Notes under the pieces: model-generated
Seen by the model: the letters and a program-made list of their open reading frames with translations, nothing else
Told to the model about the DNA's origin: nothing
Databases searched by the model: none
Position numbers and translations under genes: made by a program
Assembly (NCBI RefSeq): GCF_027111335.1
Contig: NZ_CP114288.1
Span: 434,001 to 498,000, forward strand
Length of the DNA stretch: 64,000 bases
Direction: 5' to 3'
From: Flavobacterium aquiphilum
GTDB lineage: Bacteria > Bacteroidota > Bacteroidia > Flavobacteriales > Flavobacteriaceae
Shown here: positions 1 through 53,199 of the stretch, one piece after another
Layout of the letters: each line of letters opens with the position of its first letter
Numbering within the stretch: position 1 is the stretch's first letter

Positions 1-699
1 TTCGAGAGTTTTGAGGAATTGTCTTTCGATATGGGTACATACTTCGGTTTCTATATCGTTCAACTGCGCAACTGCATCACGGCAAAAATCGTCCTCGGCC
101 ATTGCCACAACAACCATCGCTCCTTGTGCAGGCGCTGGAATCATCCAATCAAGATTAATGTAATTTTCGGGTTTTAGATTGATACGCTCCAATCCTGCTG
201 CGGCAAAAACGGCACCGCTCCAATCGTTTTCCTGTAGTTTTTGCATGCGGGTATTCACGTTTCCGCGCAAATCGACTACAGTGTGATTCGGGTATTTATT
301 CCACCATTGTGCCTGACGGCGTAAACTTCCTGTGGCGATGGTTCCAGTTCCTTCTAGAAAATCAAGGTTTCCTTTGTGAATCAGAATATCCAAAGTATTG
401 GCCCGTTCCAAAACCGCCGCCTGAACAATTCCGATAGGCAAAGCAGTTGGAACGTCTTTCATGGAATGCACGGCAATATCGACCTGCCCATTGATCATGG
501 CAATGTCAAGCGTTTTCGTAAAAATTCCGGTTATTCCTAGTTCATAAAGGGGTTTGTCGAGAATAATATCGCCTTGTGATTTTACGGCAATGATTTCAGT
601 TTTATAACCTAAATCGTTTAGTTTTTTTTCTACCGTATGAGCTTGCCATAAAGCAAGTTCACTGTCACGGGTTCCTATTCGTATTGTTTTTTCTGCCAT
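1..699 (-). CDS. hemC: Porphobilinogen deaminase (hydroxymethylbilane synthase), 3' part outside window
   Basis: The minus-strand frame opens with ATG at 697-699 and runs without a stop to the window edge, giving the first 233 residues of a protein that is usually about 300-310. The start MAEKTIRIGTRDSELALWQA, followed by the KSQGDIILDKPL and AVHSMKDVPT segments, is characteristic of HemC, which polymerises four porphobilinogens into hydroxymethylbilane in the cytoplasm. The cysteine that carries the dipyrromethane cofactor would lie just beyond the window. It is transcribed in the same direction as hemA, with a GxxExxY gene and two palindromic repeats between them, so a continuous hemA-hemC operon has probably been interrupted. 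Family assignment is firm; the end is not visible. Confidence 0.95.
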   Translation of the reverse strand, partial: MAEKTIRIGTRDSELALWQAHTVEKKLNDLGYKTEIIAVKSQGDIILDKPLYELGITGIFTKTLDIAMINGQVDIAVHSMKDVPTALPIGIVQAAVLERANTLDILIHKGNLDFLEGTGTIATGSLRRQAQWWNKYPNHTVVDLRGNVNTRMQKLQENDWSGAVFAAAGLERINLKPENYINLDWMIPAPAQGAMVVVAMAEDDFCRDAVAQLNDIETEVCTHIERQFLKTLE

Positions 700-7822: not shown

Positions 7823-7859
7823 TTAGAACTTTAAATCAACGGCTAAATTCGAAAAAATA

Positions 7860-7953
7860 ATATTCAAATATCAAATTATTATAATATTTTGATATTCAAA
7901 TATCAAAATATTATATTTTTTTAATATCATAATATCAAATTATTATATATTTG
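7860..7953 (+). promoter_or_regulatory. Three-unit 32-bp-period repeat array with promoter before DUF4143 ATPase gene 1
   Basis: Units beginning at 7860, 7892 and 7924 share the 16-mer ATATTCAAATATCAAA (the third with a few changes) at an exact 32-bp period. The middle unit is centred on a perfect palindrome with 16-bp arms (7881-7896 and 7899-7914, centre CA). A TATATTTG -7 element follows at 7946-7953, 20 bp before the ATG. The array covers the position where -33 contacts would be, as expected of operators. The second ATPase gene (52069) has the same layout with unrelated repeat sequence. Confidence 0.85.
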
Positions 7954-7973: not shown

Positions 7974-9092
7974 ATGATAAATAGAACCCAACAATCTGAA
8001 ATTGATTCTTATCTTTTTAAAGGAAAAGCGATATTGATTTTCGGCGCACGCCAAGTAGGAAAGACATCTTTGATTAAAAACACCATCAAAAGTAAAGCTG
8101 TTTTATGGCTGAATGGCGATGAGCCTGACACGCAACTTTTGCTCGAAAATATCACTACAGACCGATTGAAGGCTTTGATTGGAAACAATACTATTTTGGT
8201 AATTGATGAAGCACAAATGGTTCATAATATTGGCTTGTTAATCAAACGAATGGTAGATAGTTTTCCTGAGATTCAAGTTATTGCTTCGGGGAGTAGCGCT
8301 TTTGAATTGGCAGATAAAACCAAAGAATCGATGATGGGCAGGAAGGAAGAATTGCAACTTTTCCCATTAACTTATAGTGAAATGGCGAATCATACTAATT
8401 TTGTTGAAGAAACGAGATTGGTTCCCCATCGATTGGTTTTTGGCTATTATCCTGAAGTAGTGAACAATCCCGGGAAAGAAGAAAAAATTCTCAATGATTT
8501 AGTCGACGGCTTTTTATATAAAGATATTTTGAATCTTGACGGTATAAAAAAATCGTCTACATTGCAAAAATTGGTTCAAATGTTGGCGTATAGAATTGGC
8601 TCTGAAATAAATTACAACTCATTAGGCAATGATTTGGGAATAAATCGATTGACTGTAGAAAAATATATTGACATCCTAGAGAAAAATTTCATTGTTTTTA
8701 GCTTAAACGCTTTTAGTCAAAATCAAGATAACGAATTAAGAAAGGGAAAAAAAATATATTTTTGGGACAACGGTTTAAGAAATAGAATTATCAAAAATTT
8801 TAATCCAATAGAACTTCGGGATGATATTGGGGCTTTATGGGAAAACTTTGTAATTAGTGAAAGAAAAAAAAAATTAATCTATCAGCAACAATACAAAGAC
8901 ACTCATTTTTGGAGAAATACCCAACAAGCCGAAATTGATTATTTGGAAATAAAAAACAATGAAATAGAAGCTTTCGAAATCAAATACAATCCAAATCAAA
9001 AGGTTCGTTTTACCAAGTCTTTCACTGAAAAATATCATCCAAAAACAACAGAGGTAATTCATAAAGAAAACTTTTGGAATTATTTGCTTTAA
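7974..9092 (+). CDS. AAA_14/DUF4143 ATP-binding protein, paralogue 1
   Basis: 372 residues. Walker A is GARQVGKTS (residues 24-32) and Walker B is LVIDEAQ (D78, E79), with the sensor-like SGSSAFEL and MGRKEELQLFPLTYSE that mark AAA_14. The C-terminal DUF4143 half contains a winged-helix-like stretch (NSLGNDLGINRLTVEKYIDI) and a nuclease-like core EIDYLEI...AFEIKYN (D322, E335, K337) resembling PD-(D/E)XK. The family's function is not established. The ATG at 7974 lies 20 bp after a TATATTTG box. Its paralogue at 52069-53199 has closely parallel motifs. No linked partner gene is visible. Confidence 0.9.
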   Translation: MINRTQQSEIDSYLFKGKAILIFGARQVGKTSLIKNTIKSKAVLWLNGDEPDTQLLLENITTDRLKALIGNNTILVIDEAQMVHNIGLLIKRMVDSFPEIQVIASGSSAFELADKTKESMMGRKEELQLFPLTYSEMANHTNFVEETRLVPHRLVFGYYPEVVNNPGKEEKILNDLVDGFLYKDILNLDGIKKSSTLQKLVQMLAYRIGSEINYNSLGNDLGINRLTVEKYIDILEKNFIVFSLNAFSQNQDNELRKGKKIYFWDNGLRNRIIKNFNPIELRDDIGALWENFVISERKKKLIYQQQYKDTHFWRNTQQAEIDYLEIKNNEIEAFEIKYNPNQKVRFTKSFTEKYHPKTTEVIHKENFWNYLL

Positions 9093-9384: not shown

Positions 9385-10410
9385 ATGGCGACGAAAGAAA
9401 ACAACAGTTCAGAGAAAGAAGCCAAGCTGAAAGCGCTACAGCTTACGCTTGACAAATTAGACAAAACATACGGAAAAGGAACTGTAATGAAAATGGGCGA
9501 CAAAGCCATTGAAGAAGTGGAGGTTATTTCTTCAGGGTCTTTGGGAGTTGATTTGGCTTTGGGAGTTGGCGGTTATCCAAAAGGAAGAATTATAGAGATT
9601 TTTGGACCTGAATCTTCGGGTAAAACCACTTTGACGCTTCATGCTATTGCCGAGGCTCAAAAAGCAGGCGGAATTGCCGCATTTATTGATGCTGAGCACG
9701 CCTTTGACAGAAACTATGCCGAGAAATTGAACGTCGATATCGAAAACTTAATCATTTCGCAACCGGATAACGGAGAGCAAGCTCTTGAAATCGCCGAAAA
9801 CTTGATTCGTTCAGGTGCGATTGACATTGTGGTTATTGACTCGGTTGCCGCATTAACTCCTAAGAGCGAGATTGAAGGCGAAATGGGAGATTCGAAAATG
9901 GGTCTTCACGCCCGTTTGATGTCTCAGGCTTTGAGAAAATTAACCGGAACAATCAGCAAAACAAACTGTACTGTATTCTTCATCAACCAATTGAGAGAAA
10001 AAATCGGGGTAATGTTTGGAAACCCTGAAACTACTACCGGGGGTAATGCCTTGAAGTTTTACGCTTCGGTACGTTTGGACATCCGTCGTTCTACCCAAAT
10101 TAAAGACGGAGAAAACGTATTGGGTAACCGAACTAAAGTAAAAATCGTTAAAAACAAAGTGGCTCCGCCATTTAAAGTGGCCGAATTTGATATCATGTAC
10201 GGTGAGGGAATTTCGAAAACCGGTGAGATCCTGGATCTTGCAGTAGAGTTTGAAATCATCAAAAAATCAGGTTCTTGGTTTAGTTATGGTGAAACCAAAT
10301 TAGGTCAAGGCCGTGATGCCGTGAAAACGTTGATAAAGGACAATCCTGAATTGGCTGACGAACTTGAAGAAAAAATCAAAAATCAGATTAAGGAATTAGC
10401 TGAAGTATAA
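9385..10410 (+). CDS. recA: Recombinase A
   Basis: 341 residues, full length. Forms ATP-dependent filaments on single-stranded DNA for homologous recombination and, in bacteria that have LexA, triggers its cleavage. Walker A is GPESSGKTT (residues 74-82), Walker B is [11 protein letters not shown], and loop L2 sits in [31 protein letters not shown] sequence with the signature [14 protein letters not shown]. No LexA-type box was identified upstream. A strong terminator follows 10 bp after the stop. Confidence 0.99.
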
Positions 10411-51952: not shown

Positions 51953-52047
51953 TGACGGAAATCAATTAAATTCCGTCAACTAACTGACGGAAATCAATTA
52001 AATTCCGTCACTATACTGACGGAAATCAATAAATATACTTATATTTG
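51953..52047 (+). promoter_or_regulatory. Three-unit 32-bp-period repeat array with promoter before DUF4143 ATPase gene 2
   Basis: Units begin at 51953, 51985 and 52017, an exact 32-bp period. The first two are 26-bp near-palindromes with arms TGACGGAA and TTCCGTCA; the third keeps only its first 13-14 bases before changing into the promoter. TATATTTG follows at 52040-52047, and the ATG at 52069 is 21 bp further on. Layout equals that at 7860-7953 with unrelated sequence. Confidence 0.88.
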
Positions 52048-52068
52048 TGTCAATTAAAATCTACTTTT

Positions 52069-53199
52069 ATGGAAATAAATAGGTTGGCACTTGATTTAGT
52101 TTTGCAAAAATTACAACCCAACAAAGTAATCGTTTTGTTAGGAGCCAGGCGGGTAGGCAAGACCGAACTGATTAAGAAACTCATGGAAAAAGTGACCGAA
52201 AAAGTGCTTTTTTTAAATGGAGACGATATTGAATCCCATAATTTATTAGAAATTCAGAGTACGGCCAATTTTAAAAGATTGCTTGGTGACACGAAATTTT
52301 TGATAATTGATGAAGCGCAAGAAATACCTGCCATTGGCAAAAAACTAAAATTGATGGTGGATACTATCGAAGATTTAAAAGTTTTGGTAACAGGTTCTTC
52401 GGCATTTGAAATTAACAATCAGTTAGGTGAGCCGTTAGTTGGCCGGATGAAAACCATCAATTTATATCCTATTTCACAAATTGAATTCTCAAAAACTGAA
52501 AATTTTCTTGAAACCCGAAATAACCTTGAAGACCGATTAATATTGGGTAGTTATCCCGAATTGAGCCATATTACAAATCGAGAAGATAAAATAAGTTATT
52601 TAAAAGAATTGGTAAATACGCAATTGTTGAGAGATGTTTTTGCTTTTGAAGGTATCAAAAAAAGAGATAAAATTATTGCGTTACTTCAGATTATTGCCTT
52701 TAGAACTGGCAGTGAATTATCACTCGAAAGTGTGGGGCGTGATTTGCAAATCAGCAAAAATACCGTCGAAAAGTATTTGGATTTATTTACTAAGGTTTTT
52801 ATAATTTATAGTGTATCAGGGTTCAGCAGAAATAGGGATAACGAAATCACTAAAATGAAAAAATGGTATTTTGTTGATAATGGTATCCGAAATGCCATTA
52901 TCAATTCGTTTAATCCATTGAATACCAGAGAAGATGTTGGCAAACTTTGGGAAAATTATCTGAATTCGGAACGAATTAAAAAAATGAGTTATACCGAAAA
53001 TTTTGTTCATGACTACTTTTGGCGCACCCATACCAAACAGGAAATAGATAGGATAGAAGAAAAAGACGAACGGTTATCGGCTTTTGAATATAAATACGGA
53101 AAAACTAAATCAAAGATCCCAACTGAATTCGCAAAATCCTATCCGGAAGCTACTTTTGAAATTATAAATCAAGACAACTATTTGGATTATATACTTTAA
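52069..53199 (+). CDS. AAA_14/DUF4143 ATP-binding protein, paralogue 2
   Basis: 376 residues from the ATG at 52069. A longer frame from GTG at 52045 would start inside the TATATTTG box and is rejected. Walker A GARRVGKT (25-32), Walker B FLIIDEAQ, SGSSAFEI-type sensor (TGSSAFEI) and VGRMKTINLYPISQIEF mark AAA_14. The DUF4143 half has the winged-helix-like ESVGRDLQISKNTVEKYLDL and the nuclease-like EIDRIEE...AFEYKYG. It reads as a clear paralogue of the protein at 7974-9092. The biochemical role is unknown. Monocistronic: own array, promoter and strong terminator. Confidence 0.9.
   Translation: MEINRLALDLVLQKLQPNKVIVLLGARRVGKTELIKKLMEKVTEKVLFLNGDDIESHNLLEIQSTANFKRLLGDTKFLIIDEAQEIPAIGKKLKLMVDTIEDLKVLVTGSSAFEINNQLGEPLVGRMKTINLYPISQIEFSKTENFLETRNNLEDRLILGSYPELSHITNREDKISYLKELVNTQLLRDVFAFEGIKKRDKIIALLQIIAFRTGSELSLESVGRDLQISKNTVEKYLDLFTKVFIIYSVSGFSRNRDNEITKMKKWYFVDNGIRNAIINSFNPLNTREDVGKLWENYLNSERIKKMSYTENFVHDYFWRTHTKQEIDRIEEKDERLSAFEYKYGKTKSKIPTEFAKSYPEATFEIINQDNYLDYIL

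What the first reader, a model, noticed from the sequence alone, without database searches (positions are those of the whole stretch)
51953..52071. Second DUF4143 ATPase gene: exact 32-bp-period operator array shared in geometry with the first locus
Seen: units start at 51953, 51985 and 52017 (period 32), TATATTTG at 52040, ATG at 52069. The other paralogue has units at 7860, 7892 and 7924, TATATTTG at 7946, ATG at 7974. Unit starts are -116/-84/-52 and -114/-82/-50 from the ATG. Repeat sequences are unrelated, so geometry is conserved while sequence has diverged. Inference: each AAA_14/DUF4143 protein, which has its own winged-helix-like segment, recognises its private array (three helical turns apart) to control itself or to mark its own DNA. 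This would be an addressable self-recognition system and I know of no description of it.
Basis: partly seen in the sequence, partly recalled or inferred. Interest (0 to 1): 0.85.

Follow-up and report, generated by a model that had tools for sequence, protein, structure and literature searches.

The report
Private DNA-address arrays of nuclease ATPases
Nearly every close relative examined of this bacterial ATPase-nuclease, a family listed as a candidate anti-virus defence, carries just before its gene a 32-letter-period array whose sequence changes together with the protein's DNA-reading helix, and some phage contigs carry the same kind of array without the gene.

Summary
Of 165 non-identical relatives examined, 158 have their best upstream self-match at 32 or 33 bp; 153 of 165 have it strongly, against 0 of 192 other-ORF upstreams. 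The arrays are palindromes phased on the Bacteroidota promoter, the last half-site about 20-25 bp before TAnnTTTG. Array sequence tracks four residues at the start of the recognition helix of a winged helix. Paralogues in one genome share these residues less often than chance. Best reading: each AAA+/winged-helix/PD-(D/E)XK protein binds its private array and represses its own promoter. The family is PADLOC's PDC-S01, a very common defence candidate awaiting validation. Unexpectedly, nine viral contigs (four phage groups) carry arrays of three classes with no family gene found, and five chromosomes keep an array where the gene is lost. That suggests the array may also be a decoy or restraint. 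The 32-bp rule was seen only in this clade; in other PDC-S01 branches 15 of 55 upstreams had significant direct repeats, mostly of other periods. No binding, repression or defence was tested experimentally.

The parts
51953..51978 (+). Array unit 1: palindrome TGACGGAA-N10-TTCCGTCA
   Evidence: sequence; TRF period 32
51985..52010 (+). Array unit 2: identical palindrome, 32 bp on
   Evidence: sequence; in the 5.05-Mb genome the palindrome pattern (no mismatch) occurs only in units 1 and 2
52017..52024 (+). Half-site 3 (TGACGGAA), 23 bp before the TATATTTG box, over the presumed -33 region of the promoter
   Evidence: sequence; similar spacing in relatives
52040..52047 (+). TATATTTG, Bacteroidota promoter box (TAnnTTTG)
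   Evidence: sequence; consensus as quoted in PMC6414381
52069..53199 (+). Gene for 376-aa AAA_14-winged helix-DUF4143 protein (PADLOC PDC-S01, model PDLC04789)
52120..52488 (+). AAA_14 ATPase domain (residues 18-140); Walker A G25, G30, K31 and Walker B D81, E82 in 165 of 165
52663..52872 (+). Winged helix (residues 199-268): helices 199-211, 219-226, recognition helix 230-242, wing strands 246-251 and 264-268
   Evidence: AlphaFold2 model
52753..52764 (+). Residues 229-232 (SKNT), start of the recognition helix, the positions that co-vary with array class
52936..53196 (+). C-terminal PD-(D/E)XK-like nuclease part; D327 165/165, E340 162/165, K342 164/165
7858..7952 (+). Paralogue's array: period 32, palindrome TTGATATT-N2-AATATCAA
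7946..7953 (+). TATATTTG promoter box of the paralogue
7974..9092 (+). Paralogue gene, 372 aa, AAA_14-DUF4143, recognition tetrapeptide NRLT

Best explanation
The array is the private operator of the gene it precedes. The protein (AAA+ ATPase, winged helix, PD-(D/E)XK nuclease fold) binds as a symmetric pair on each palindrome; neighbouring pairs sit three helical turns apart on the same face of DNA, and the last half-site lies on the -33 region, so occupancy blocks transcription of the protein's own gene. Specificity is set by the first residues of the recognition helix, and paralogues in one cell use different addresses so that they do not cross-regulate. The protein is probably the effector of a one-gene defence system (PDC-S01), kept low by autorepression until infection or titration of the protein relieves it. 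SHOWN by computation: array, period, promoter phasing, linkage to the gene, co-variation with the helix in the larger classes, conserved catalytic motifs, arrays without the gene in phage contigs. INFERRED: binding, repression, nuclease activity, defence.
For: Period 32/33 in 158 of 165 relatives, strong in 153 of 165, 0 of 192 control upstreams. Strict TAnnTTTG 12-70 bp before the start in 155 of 165 against 44 of 196 control upstreams. Among those with the box, the last half-site begins 22-25 bp before it in 53 of 70 class-A genes, 20-22 bp in 24 of 25 class-B and 18 of 19 class-C genes (the half-site nearest 24 bp was taken). Motif against helix (motifs chosen after reading): TGAC..A at least 3 times in 70 of 73 S/AKNT proteins and 0 of 85 others; [AT]TCAC[CTA] in 26 of 26 DKNT and 0 of 132 others; AATATCA in 13 of 14 xRLT and 0 of 144 others; A[AT]TCC[AGT] in 20 of 20 DxKT and 14 of 138 others. 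On a tree built without the winged helix, 9 branches carry both a tetrapeptide change and an array-cluster change, 1.1 expected (7 v 1.5 and 5 v 0.8 at other cluster cut-offs). Helix positions from the model. The window array's palindrome is found nowhere else in its genome. After tex, 3 of 30 genomes (own genome included) have array plus gene, 27 of 30 have neither (arrays judged by eye).
Against: No binding or expression data. Array class and helix both follow phylogeny: in a partial-correlation scan the winged-helix window 222-228 ranks first (0.276), but an AAA-domain window is almost equal (0.272 at 44-50). For the small classes simple motifs failed: [CT]GGAAA in 4 of 9 KSET but also 17 of 73 S/AKNT; [AT]AACC[CAT] in 3 of 10 DRMT/V; the DRAT motif was unspecific. 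A looser promoter test finds TAnnTTTG within 45 bp after the last half-site in 100 of 119. Plain autoregulation does not explain arrays without the gene in phage contigs or arrays kept after gene loss. Seven of 165 relatives have another best lag, among them the four most distant loci. Other PDC-S01 branches do not share the 32-bp rule.
Confidence: 0.7

Rival explanations
1. The array is chiefly a restraint or self-tag: protein sitting on its array is held inactive as a nuclease, so DNA that carries an array is spared or soaks the protein up. Phages carry arrays as decoys, and cells that lost the gene keep the array against incoming copies.
For: Nine IMG/VR contigs in four phage groups carry class A, B or C arrays; a DUF4143 match is found in 0 of 9 whole records. 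Groups 2 and 3 are distantly related to each other (66-79% DNA identity in patches) yet carry arrays of different classes. Seven of 9 have no TAnnTTTG within 45 bp of the array. The reversed class-A pattern gives 0 contigs against 5. The spacing in the B and C contigs came out at exactly 32 bp although the patterns allowed 6 and 7 spacings. Five chromosomes keep class-B arrays where promoter and gene are missing. In one pair of such scars the array has 2 of 43 mismatches against 35 of 205 adjacent (P about 0.02).
Against: Promoter phasing points to transcription control. The conservation test is weak: P = 0.05 against the whole 3 kb, and the phage pairs show none (P = 0.22 and 0.76). Class-A array pattern in 398 genomes: none without the gene. 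Three other viral patterns found nothing and no reversed control was run for B and C. The records are fragments, so the gene could lie elsewhere in the phage; that these contigs are viral is IMG/VR's call.
Confidence: 0.3
2. Phages use the host's repressor: the phage array is an operator by which phage genes are silenced or timed in hosts that carry the matching protein.
For: Arrays lie between phage ORFs, in group 1 shortly before an ORF.
Against: No TAnnTTTG beyond the array in 7 of 9 contigs; in L327/L328 it points into the preceding ORF.
Confidence: 0.12
3. The array is an origin-like or loading platform, as archaeal Orc1/Cdc6 boxes are for their AAA+/winged-helix initiators.
Against: The gene sits in an ordinary chromosomal place (after tex), the array is phased on a promoter, and the C-terminal nuclease motif is conserved.
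Confidence: 0.04
4. Array and helix merely share ancestry: the repeats are inherited promoter furniture and co-variation is phylogenetic.
For: Both follow clades; the partial-correlation scan is not sharply peaked.
Against: Branch-level coincidence 9 v 1.1; at that cut-off most array clusters hold one tetrapeptide group; period and palindrome persist while sequence is replaced; paralogues in one genome differ (4 shared pairs of 78, 9.7 expected, P = 0.02).
Confidence: 0.08

Closest known systems
PDC-S01 (PADLOC phage-defence candidate; AAA_14 PF13173 + DUF4143 PF13635)
   Same: Both window proteins hit PDLC04789 end to end (E 9.8e-149 and 4.1e-153). Described as ATPase fused to PD-(D/E)XK; called fourth most common defence across prokaryotes, validation pending for most PDCs (PMC12988326, passages).
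   Different: No private operator, helix code or phage-borne array was found in the searches.
RptR (repressor of an E. coli defence island; PMC12255303, abstract and outline)
   Same: A protein binding three direct repeats in a defence promoter and repressing it, with a palindromic minimal site.
   Different: RptR is a separate small regulator; here regulator and presumed effector are one protein, with array sequence diversified between paralogues.
SSO1545-type archaeal ATPase (PDB 2fna) and STAND/NLR ATPases
   Different: Those matches barely test the C-terminal part; no operator arrays are known to me for them (recalled).
Autoregulated type II toxin-antitoxin operons
   Same: Effector level set by binding at the own promoter (PMC7730913, start of abstract in search listing).
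   Different: One gene, no separate antitoxin at the window loci.
Archaeal Orc1/Cdc6 with origin recognition boxes (recalled)
   Same: AAA+/winged-helix protein with private repeats beside its gene.
   Different: Promoter-phased array, conserved nuclease motif.

Membership tests
PDC-S01 / AAA_14-DUF4143 | AAA_14 and DUF4143 domains above Pfam cut-offs, PADLOC PDC-S01 model match | tested here: met
PDC-S01 / AAA_14-DUF4143 | conserved Walker A/B and PD-(D/E)XK residues | tested here: met
   K31, D81, E82, D327 165/165; E340 162/165; K342 164/165
PDC-S01 / AAA_14-DUF4143 | anti-phage activity | not testable with these tools
   no experiment; literature says validation pending
Self-repressing operator system (RptR-like) | repeated palindromic sites overlapping the gene's promoter | tested here: met
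Self-repressing operator system (RptR-like) | the gene product contains a DNA-binding domain whose reading residues co-vary with the sites | tested here: met
   for the larger classes; not separable from phylogeny
Self-repressing operator system (RptR-like) | binding and repression | not testable with these tools
   needs EMSA and reporter
STAND / SSO1545-type ATPases | AAA + lid + winged-helix fold | tested here: met
Orc1/Cdc6-ORB | array functions in replication initiation | not tested
   no replication data
Type II toxin-antitoxin | two-gene operon with a separate antitoxin | tested here: not met
   single gene between array and the next ORFs in the window; relatives not systematically tested
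CRISPR array | identical repeats separated by long variable spacers | tested here: not met
   6-bp gaps between palindromes

The most novel reading that the evidence does not exclude
The array is a DNA-encoded antidote and identity tag: each one-gene ATPase-nuclease is held in check by its own private array, replicons carrying the matching array are spared, and phages (and cells that lost the gene) keep array mimics to blunt it. This would be a family of mutually orthogonal 'DNA addresses' written in a four-residue code at the start of a recognition helix.
Probability: 0.25. Interest if true: 0.92.

Novelty: new variant of a known kind. Interest (0 to 1): 0.77.

Why it matters
PDC-S01 is reported as one of the most common defence candidates in prokaryotes, yet I found nothing on how it is controlled or what it recognises. 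The arrays give its likely DNA sites base by base in over 150 members, tie them to named residues, and say which paralogues should not cross-talk. Arrays without the gene in phage contigs give a specific, cheap hypothesis about counter-defence by DNA decoy. All three claims can be tested in laboratory Flavobacterium or in vitro.

Tried and rejected
Partial-correlation scan of array distance against protein windows: not decisive, confounded by phylogeny. Automatic choice of palindrome axis: unreliable for AT-rich arrays because each array has two sets of axes; class motifs were counted instead, and these failed for the small classes KSET, DRMT/V and DRAT. A plasmid or isolated-phage source of the arrays: the window array gave no match in PLSDB plasmids or INPHARED phages; a phage array and a class-B array gave one weak partial match each in INPHARED. 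A stricter class B, a class D and a second class-A pattern in viral contigs: 0 hits each. No relative in the PDB by sequence at E <= 0.1. CRISPR and regulon control: no spacers, and no other exact site of the window array in its own genome. Transposon ends were not tested.

Rows dropped. 175 loci became 173 with two broken genes (L048, L055) left out, then 165 after removing identical protein-plus-upstream pairs, then 158 with lag 32/33 for class work. About 20 rows listed and all unlisted ones were not fetched, and one search kept only matches at E <= 1e-60 and scored at most four candidates a genome. The 196 controls are ORFs of at least 150 aa (not all need be genes) in the window and L033-L071; three were missed family members and one, in L036, holds a family array, leaving 192; 11 of these have lag 32/33 but with weak scores. 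Of 60 loci of other branches 55 were usable.

Full report
WHAT IS THERE. The array at 51953-52024 is two identical palindromes (TGACGGAA-N10-TTCCGTCA) 32 bp apart plus a third half-site, then TATATTTG at 52040 and ATG at 52069. The other locus, 7858-7952, has the same period with a different palindrome (TTGATATT-N2-AATATCAA). Neither array's score is reached by any of 200 dinucleotide shuffles (z 9.4 and 6.0). In the 5.05-Mb genome the first palindrome pattern occurs at its own array only, and the genome has two DUF4143 matches, both in this window.

THE ARRAY IS A CLADE TRAIT. From the genus search (105 of 398 genomes with a match at E <= 1e-60), a genome-contig search (43 loci) and 100 further fetched stretches, with the two own loci, I had 175 loci. 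The best self-match lag in the 150 bp before the start codon is 32 or 33 in 166 of 173 usable loci, and in 158 of 165 after removing identical ones; 153 of 165 reach 21 of 30 matches. The seven exceptions are L059, the four most distant loci L072-L075 (26-43% identity), L091 (lag 31) and L162 (lag 21). Of 196 control upstreams, 4 passed the same cut: three missed family members and one ORF whose upstream holds a family array; so 0 of 192. L033-L071 come from records named Flavobacterium, Pedobacter, Chitinophaga, Spirosoma and others, at 51-98% identity. A Treponema plasmid gene and a gut phage contig gene, each at 41% identity, also have best lag 32 (no shuffle test); of eleven such distant upstreams checked the others were weak or had other lags.

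PHASING. Strict TAnnTTTG lies 12-70 bp before the start in 155 of 165 against 44 of 196 control upstreams; that this is the Bacteroidota promoter consensus is quoted in PMC6414381 (passages). The last half-site (nearest to 24 bp taken) begins 22-25 bp before it in 53 of 70 class-A genes, 20-22 bp in 24 of 25 class-B and 18 of 19 class-C genes; class D mostly 15 bp with the half-site as defined (9 of 14). Asked more loosely, TAnnTTTG follows within 45 bp in 100 of 119. A protein bound there would cover the -33 region (position of that element recalled). This is why I favour autorepression.

THE ADDRESS CODE. The four residues at the start of the recognition helix (229-232) sort with the array: S/AKNT with TGAC..A, DKNT with [AT]TCAC[CTA], xRLT with AATATCA, DxKT with A[AT]TCC[AGT] (counts; motifs were chosen after reading), and, by eye only, KSET with TTTCC...GGAAA and DRMT with GGGTT...AACC. 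Simple motifs for KSET, DRMT/V and DRAT did not separate these small classes. The array nearest in sequence belongs to a protein with the same tetrapeptide in 85 of 158 cases even when only proteins under 60% identity are allowed, 15% expected. On a tree built without the winged helix, 9 branches carry both kinds of change where 1.1 are expected; the expectation treats branches as independent and equal. Against this, a partial-correlation scan puts the winged-helix window first only by a hair over an AAA window, so phylogeny is not excluded.

PRIVACY. In 31 genomes with two to four members in the set, 4 of 78 within-genome pairs share the tetrapeptide against 9.7 +- 2.8 by permutation (P = 0.02), and those four pairs have dissimilar arrays (cosine 0.17-0.29). 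At most four candidates per genome were scored by the search, and single-copy orthology could contribute.

LINKAGE AND SCARS. The class-A palindrome pattern hits 16 of 398 genomes; in 12 it lies directly before a family gene (placed), in 4 it is a lone palindrome without neighbouring half-sites or family gene; the reversed pattern hits 14 genomes, so lone hits are expected. The exact pattern sees only part of the class-A arrays. The class-B array pattern hits 18 of 299 genomes, its reverse none: 12 before a family gene, 1 without array structure (L337), and 5 arrays with no family gene within 1.5 kb. Four of these five run into what reads as the last codons of the gene (NFREFLK-like; by eye), so promoter and gene were deleted and the array stayed. 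Against intact L020, three (L335, L336, L338) match on both flanks, L339 upstream only and L347 downstream only. In the one pair sharing a scar the array has 2 of 43 mismatches against 35 of 205 nearby (P about 0.02) or 423 of 3037 over the stretch (P = 0.05): suggestive only. After tex, 3 of 30 genomes, the window's own among them, have array plus gene (one a broken gene that keeps its array) and 27 have neither.

PHAGE CONTIGS CARRY THE ADDRESS. IMG/VR contigs with the class-A array pattern: 5, in two groups (L325/L326/L329 and L327/L328); reversed pattern 0. One group-1 unit of 26 bp is identical to the units of bacterial locus L038. Class B: 2 contigs, one phage (L331/L332). Class C: 2 contigs, one phage (L333/L334). 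Period 32 in all. By blastn, groups 1 and 4 match no other group, while groups 2 and 3 share 66-79% patches and yet carry different classes. None of the 9 whole records has a DUF4143 match at E <= 1, but none is known to be complete. Seven of 9 lack TAnnTTTG next to the array; L327/L328 have one pointing into the neighbouring ORF. INPHARED gave no array. L326's DNA is closest to Flavobacterium phages (68 of 72 records, one short match of 163 bases in the best rows). This is the part I find most surprising, and autoregulation alone does not explain it.

LIMITS OF THE PERIOD. In branches PDLC04790 and PDLC04787, 55 of 60 loci were usable; 15 of 55 have a direct-repeat lag at P <= 0.02: 22-23 bp in 8 (L191, L194, L195, L197, L212, L226, L233, L238), 33-34 bp in 3, others in 4; 40 have none at that level. 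Some show inverted repeats over the presumed promoter by eye. So a private repeat at the promoter may be wider than this clade, but that is not shown; 32 bp is a property of this clade.

LITERATURE. 'DUF4143' occurs in 1 paper of the library: a Thermus transcriptome in which an AAA_14/DUF4143 gene rises 6.6-fold with plasmid DNA when Argonaute is present (PMC4406477, section 7). PDC-S01 occurs in 3; passages of two were seen. I found no account of these arrays in the searches; most subscription papers and bioRxiv are not held.

VERDICT. A real, clade-wide, promoter-phased private operator system of a common but uncharacterised defence candidate, with an unexplained phage connection. Binding, repression and defence remain to be shown.

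Noticed in passing
L191, L194, L195, L197, L212, L226, L233, L238 (upstream of the gene): Members of other PDC-S01 branches carry 22-23-bp direct repeats before the gene (L195 several copies of a 23-bp unit); others seem to have single inverted repeats over the promoter. A different geometry of what may be the same principle.
   Followed up: partly
L335, L336, L338, L339, L347: Class-B arrays left behind where promoter and gene are missing; four run into what reads as the last codons of the lost gene.
   Followed up: partly
L268 (genome G007) and L048: A family gene with several stop codons after tex still keeps its array.
   Followed up: no
L060, L067: Contigs labelled Actinomyces and Bifidobacterium MAGs encode members like those of Bacteroidota with TAnnTTTG boxes, probably mis-binned.
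   Followed up: no
L327, L328, L331, L332: Two distantly related phage groups carry arrays of different classes (A and B), as if the address had been exchanged.
   Followed up: partly
L327 893-972 and L328 3103-3142: In two related phage contigs one alignable block ends at the array; the intergenic DNA just beyond it is unlike.
   Followed up: partly
L326 3836-4237 and 5397-6065: The array-bearing phage contig has nuclease-like ORFs around the array (by eye; not searched against families).
   Followed up: no
window 9385-10410: The first paralogue lies just upstream of a 341-aa ORF that looks like recA (by eye).
   Followed up: no
L024 and L123, genome G208: One genome carries two DKNT members whose arrays are dissimilar (cosine 0.29), so the tetrapeptide alone does not fix the address.
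   Followed up: no
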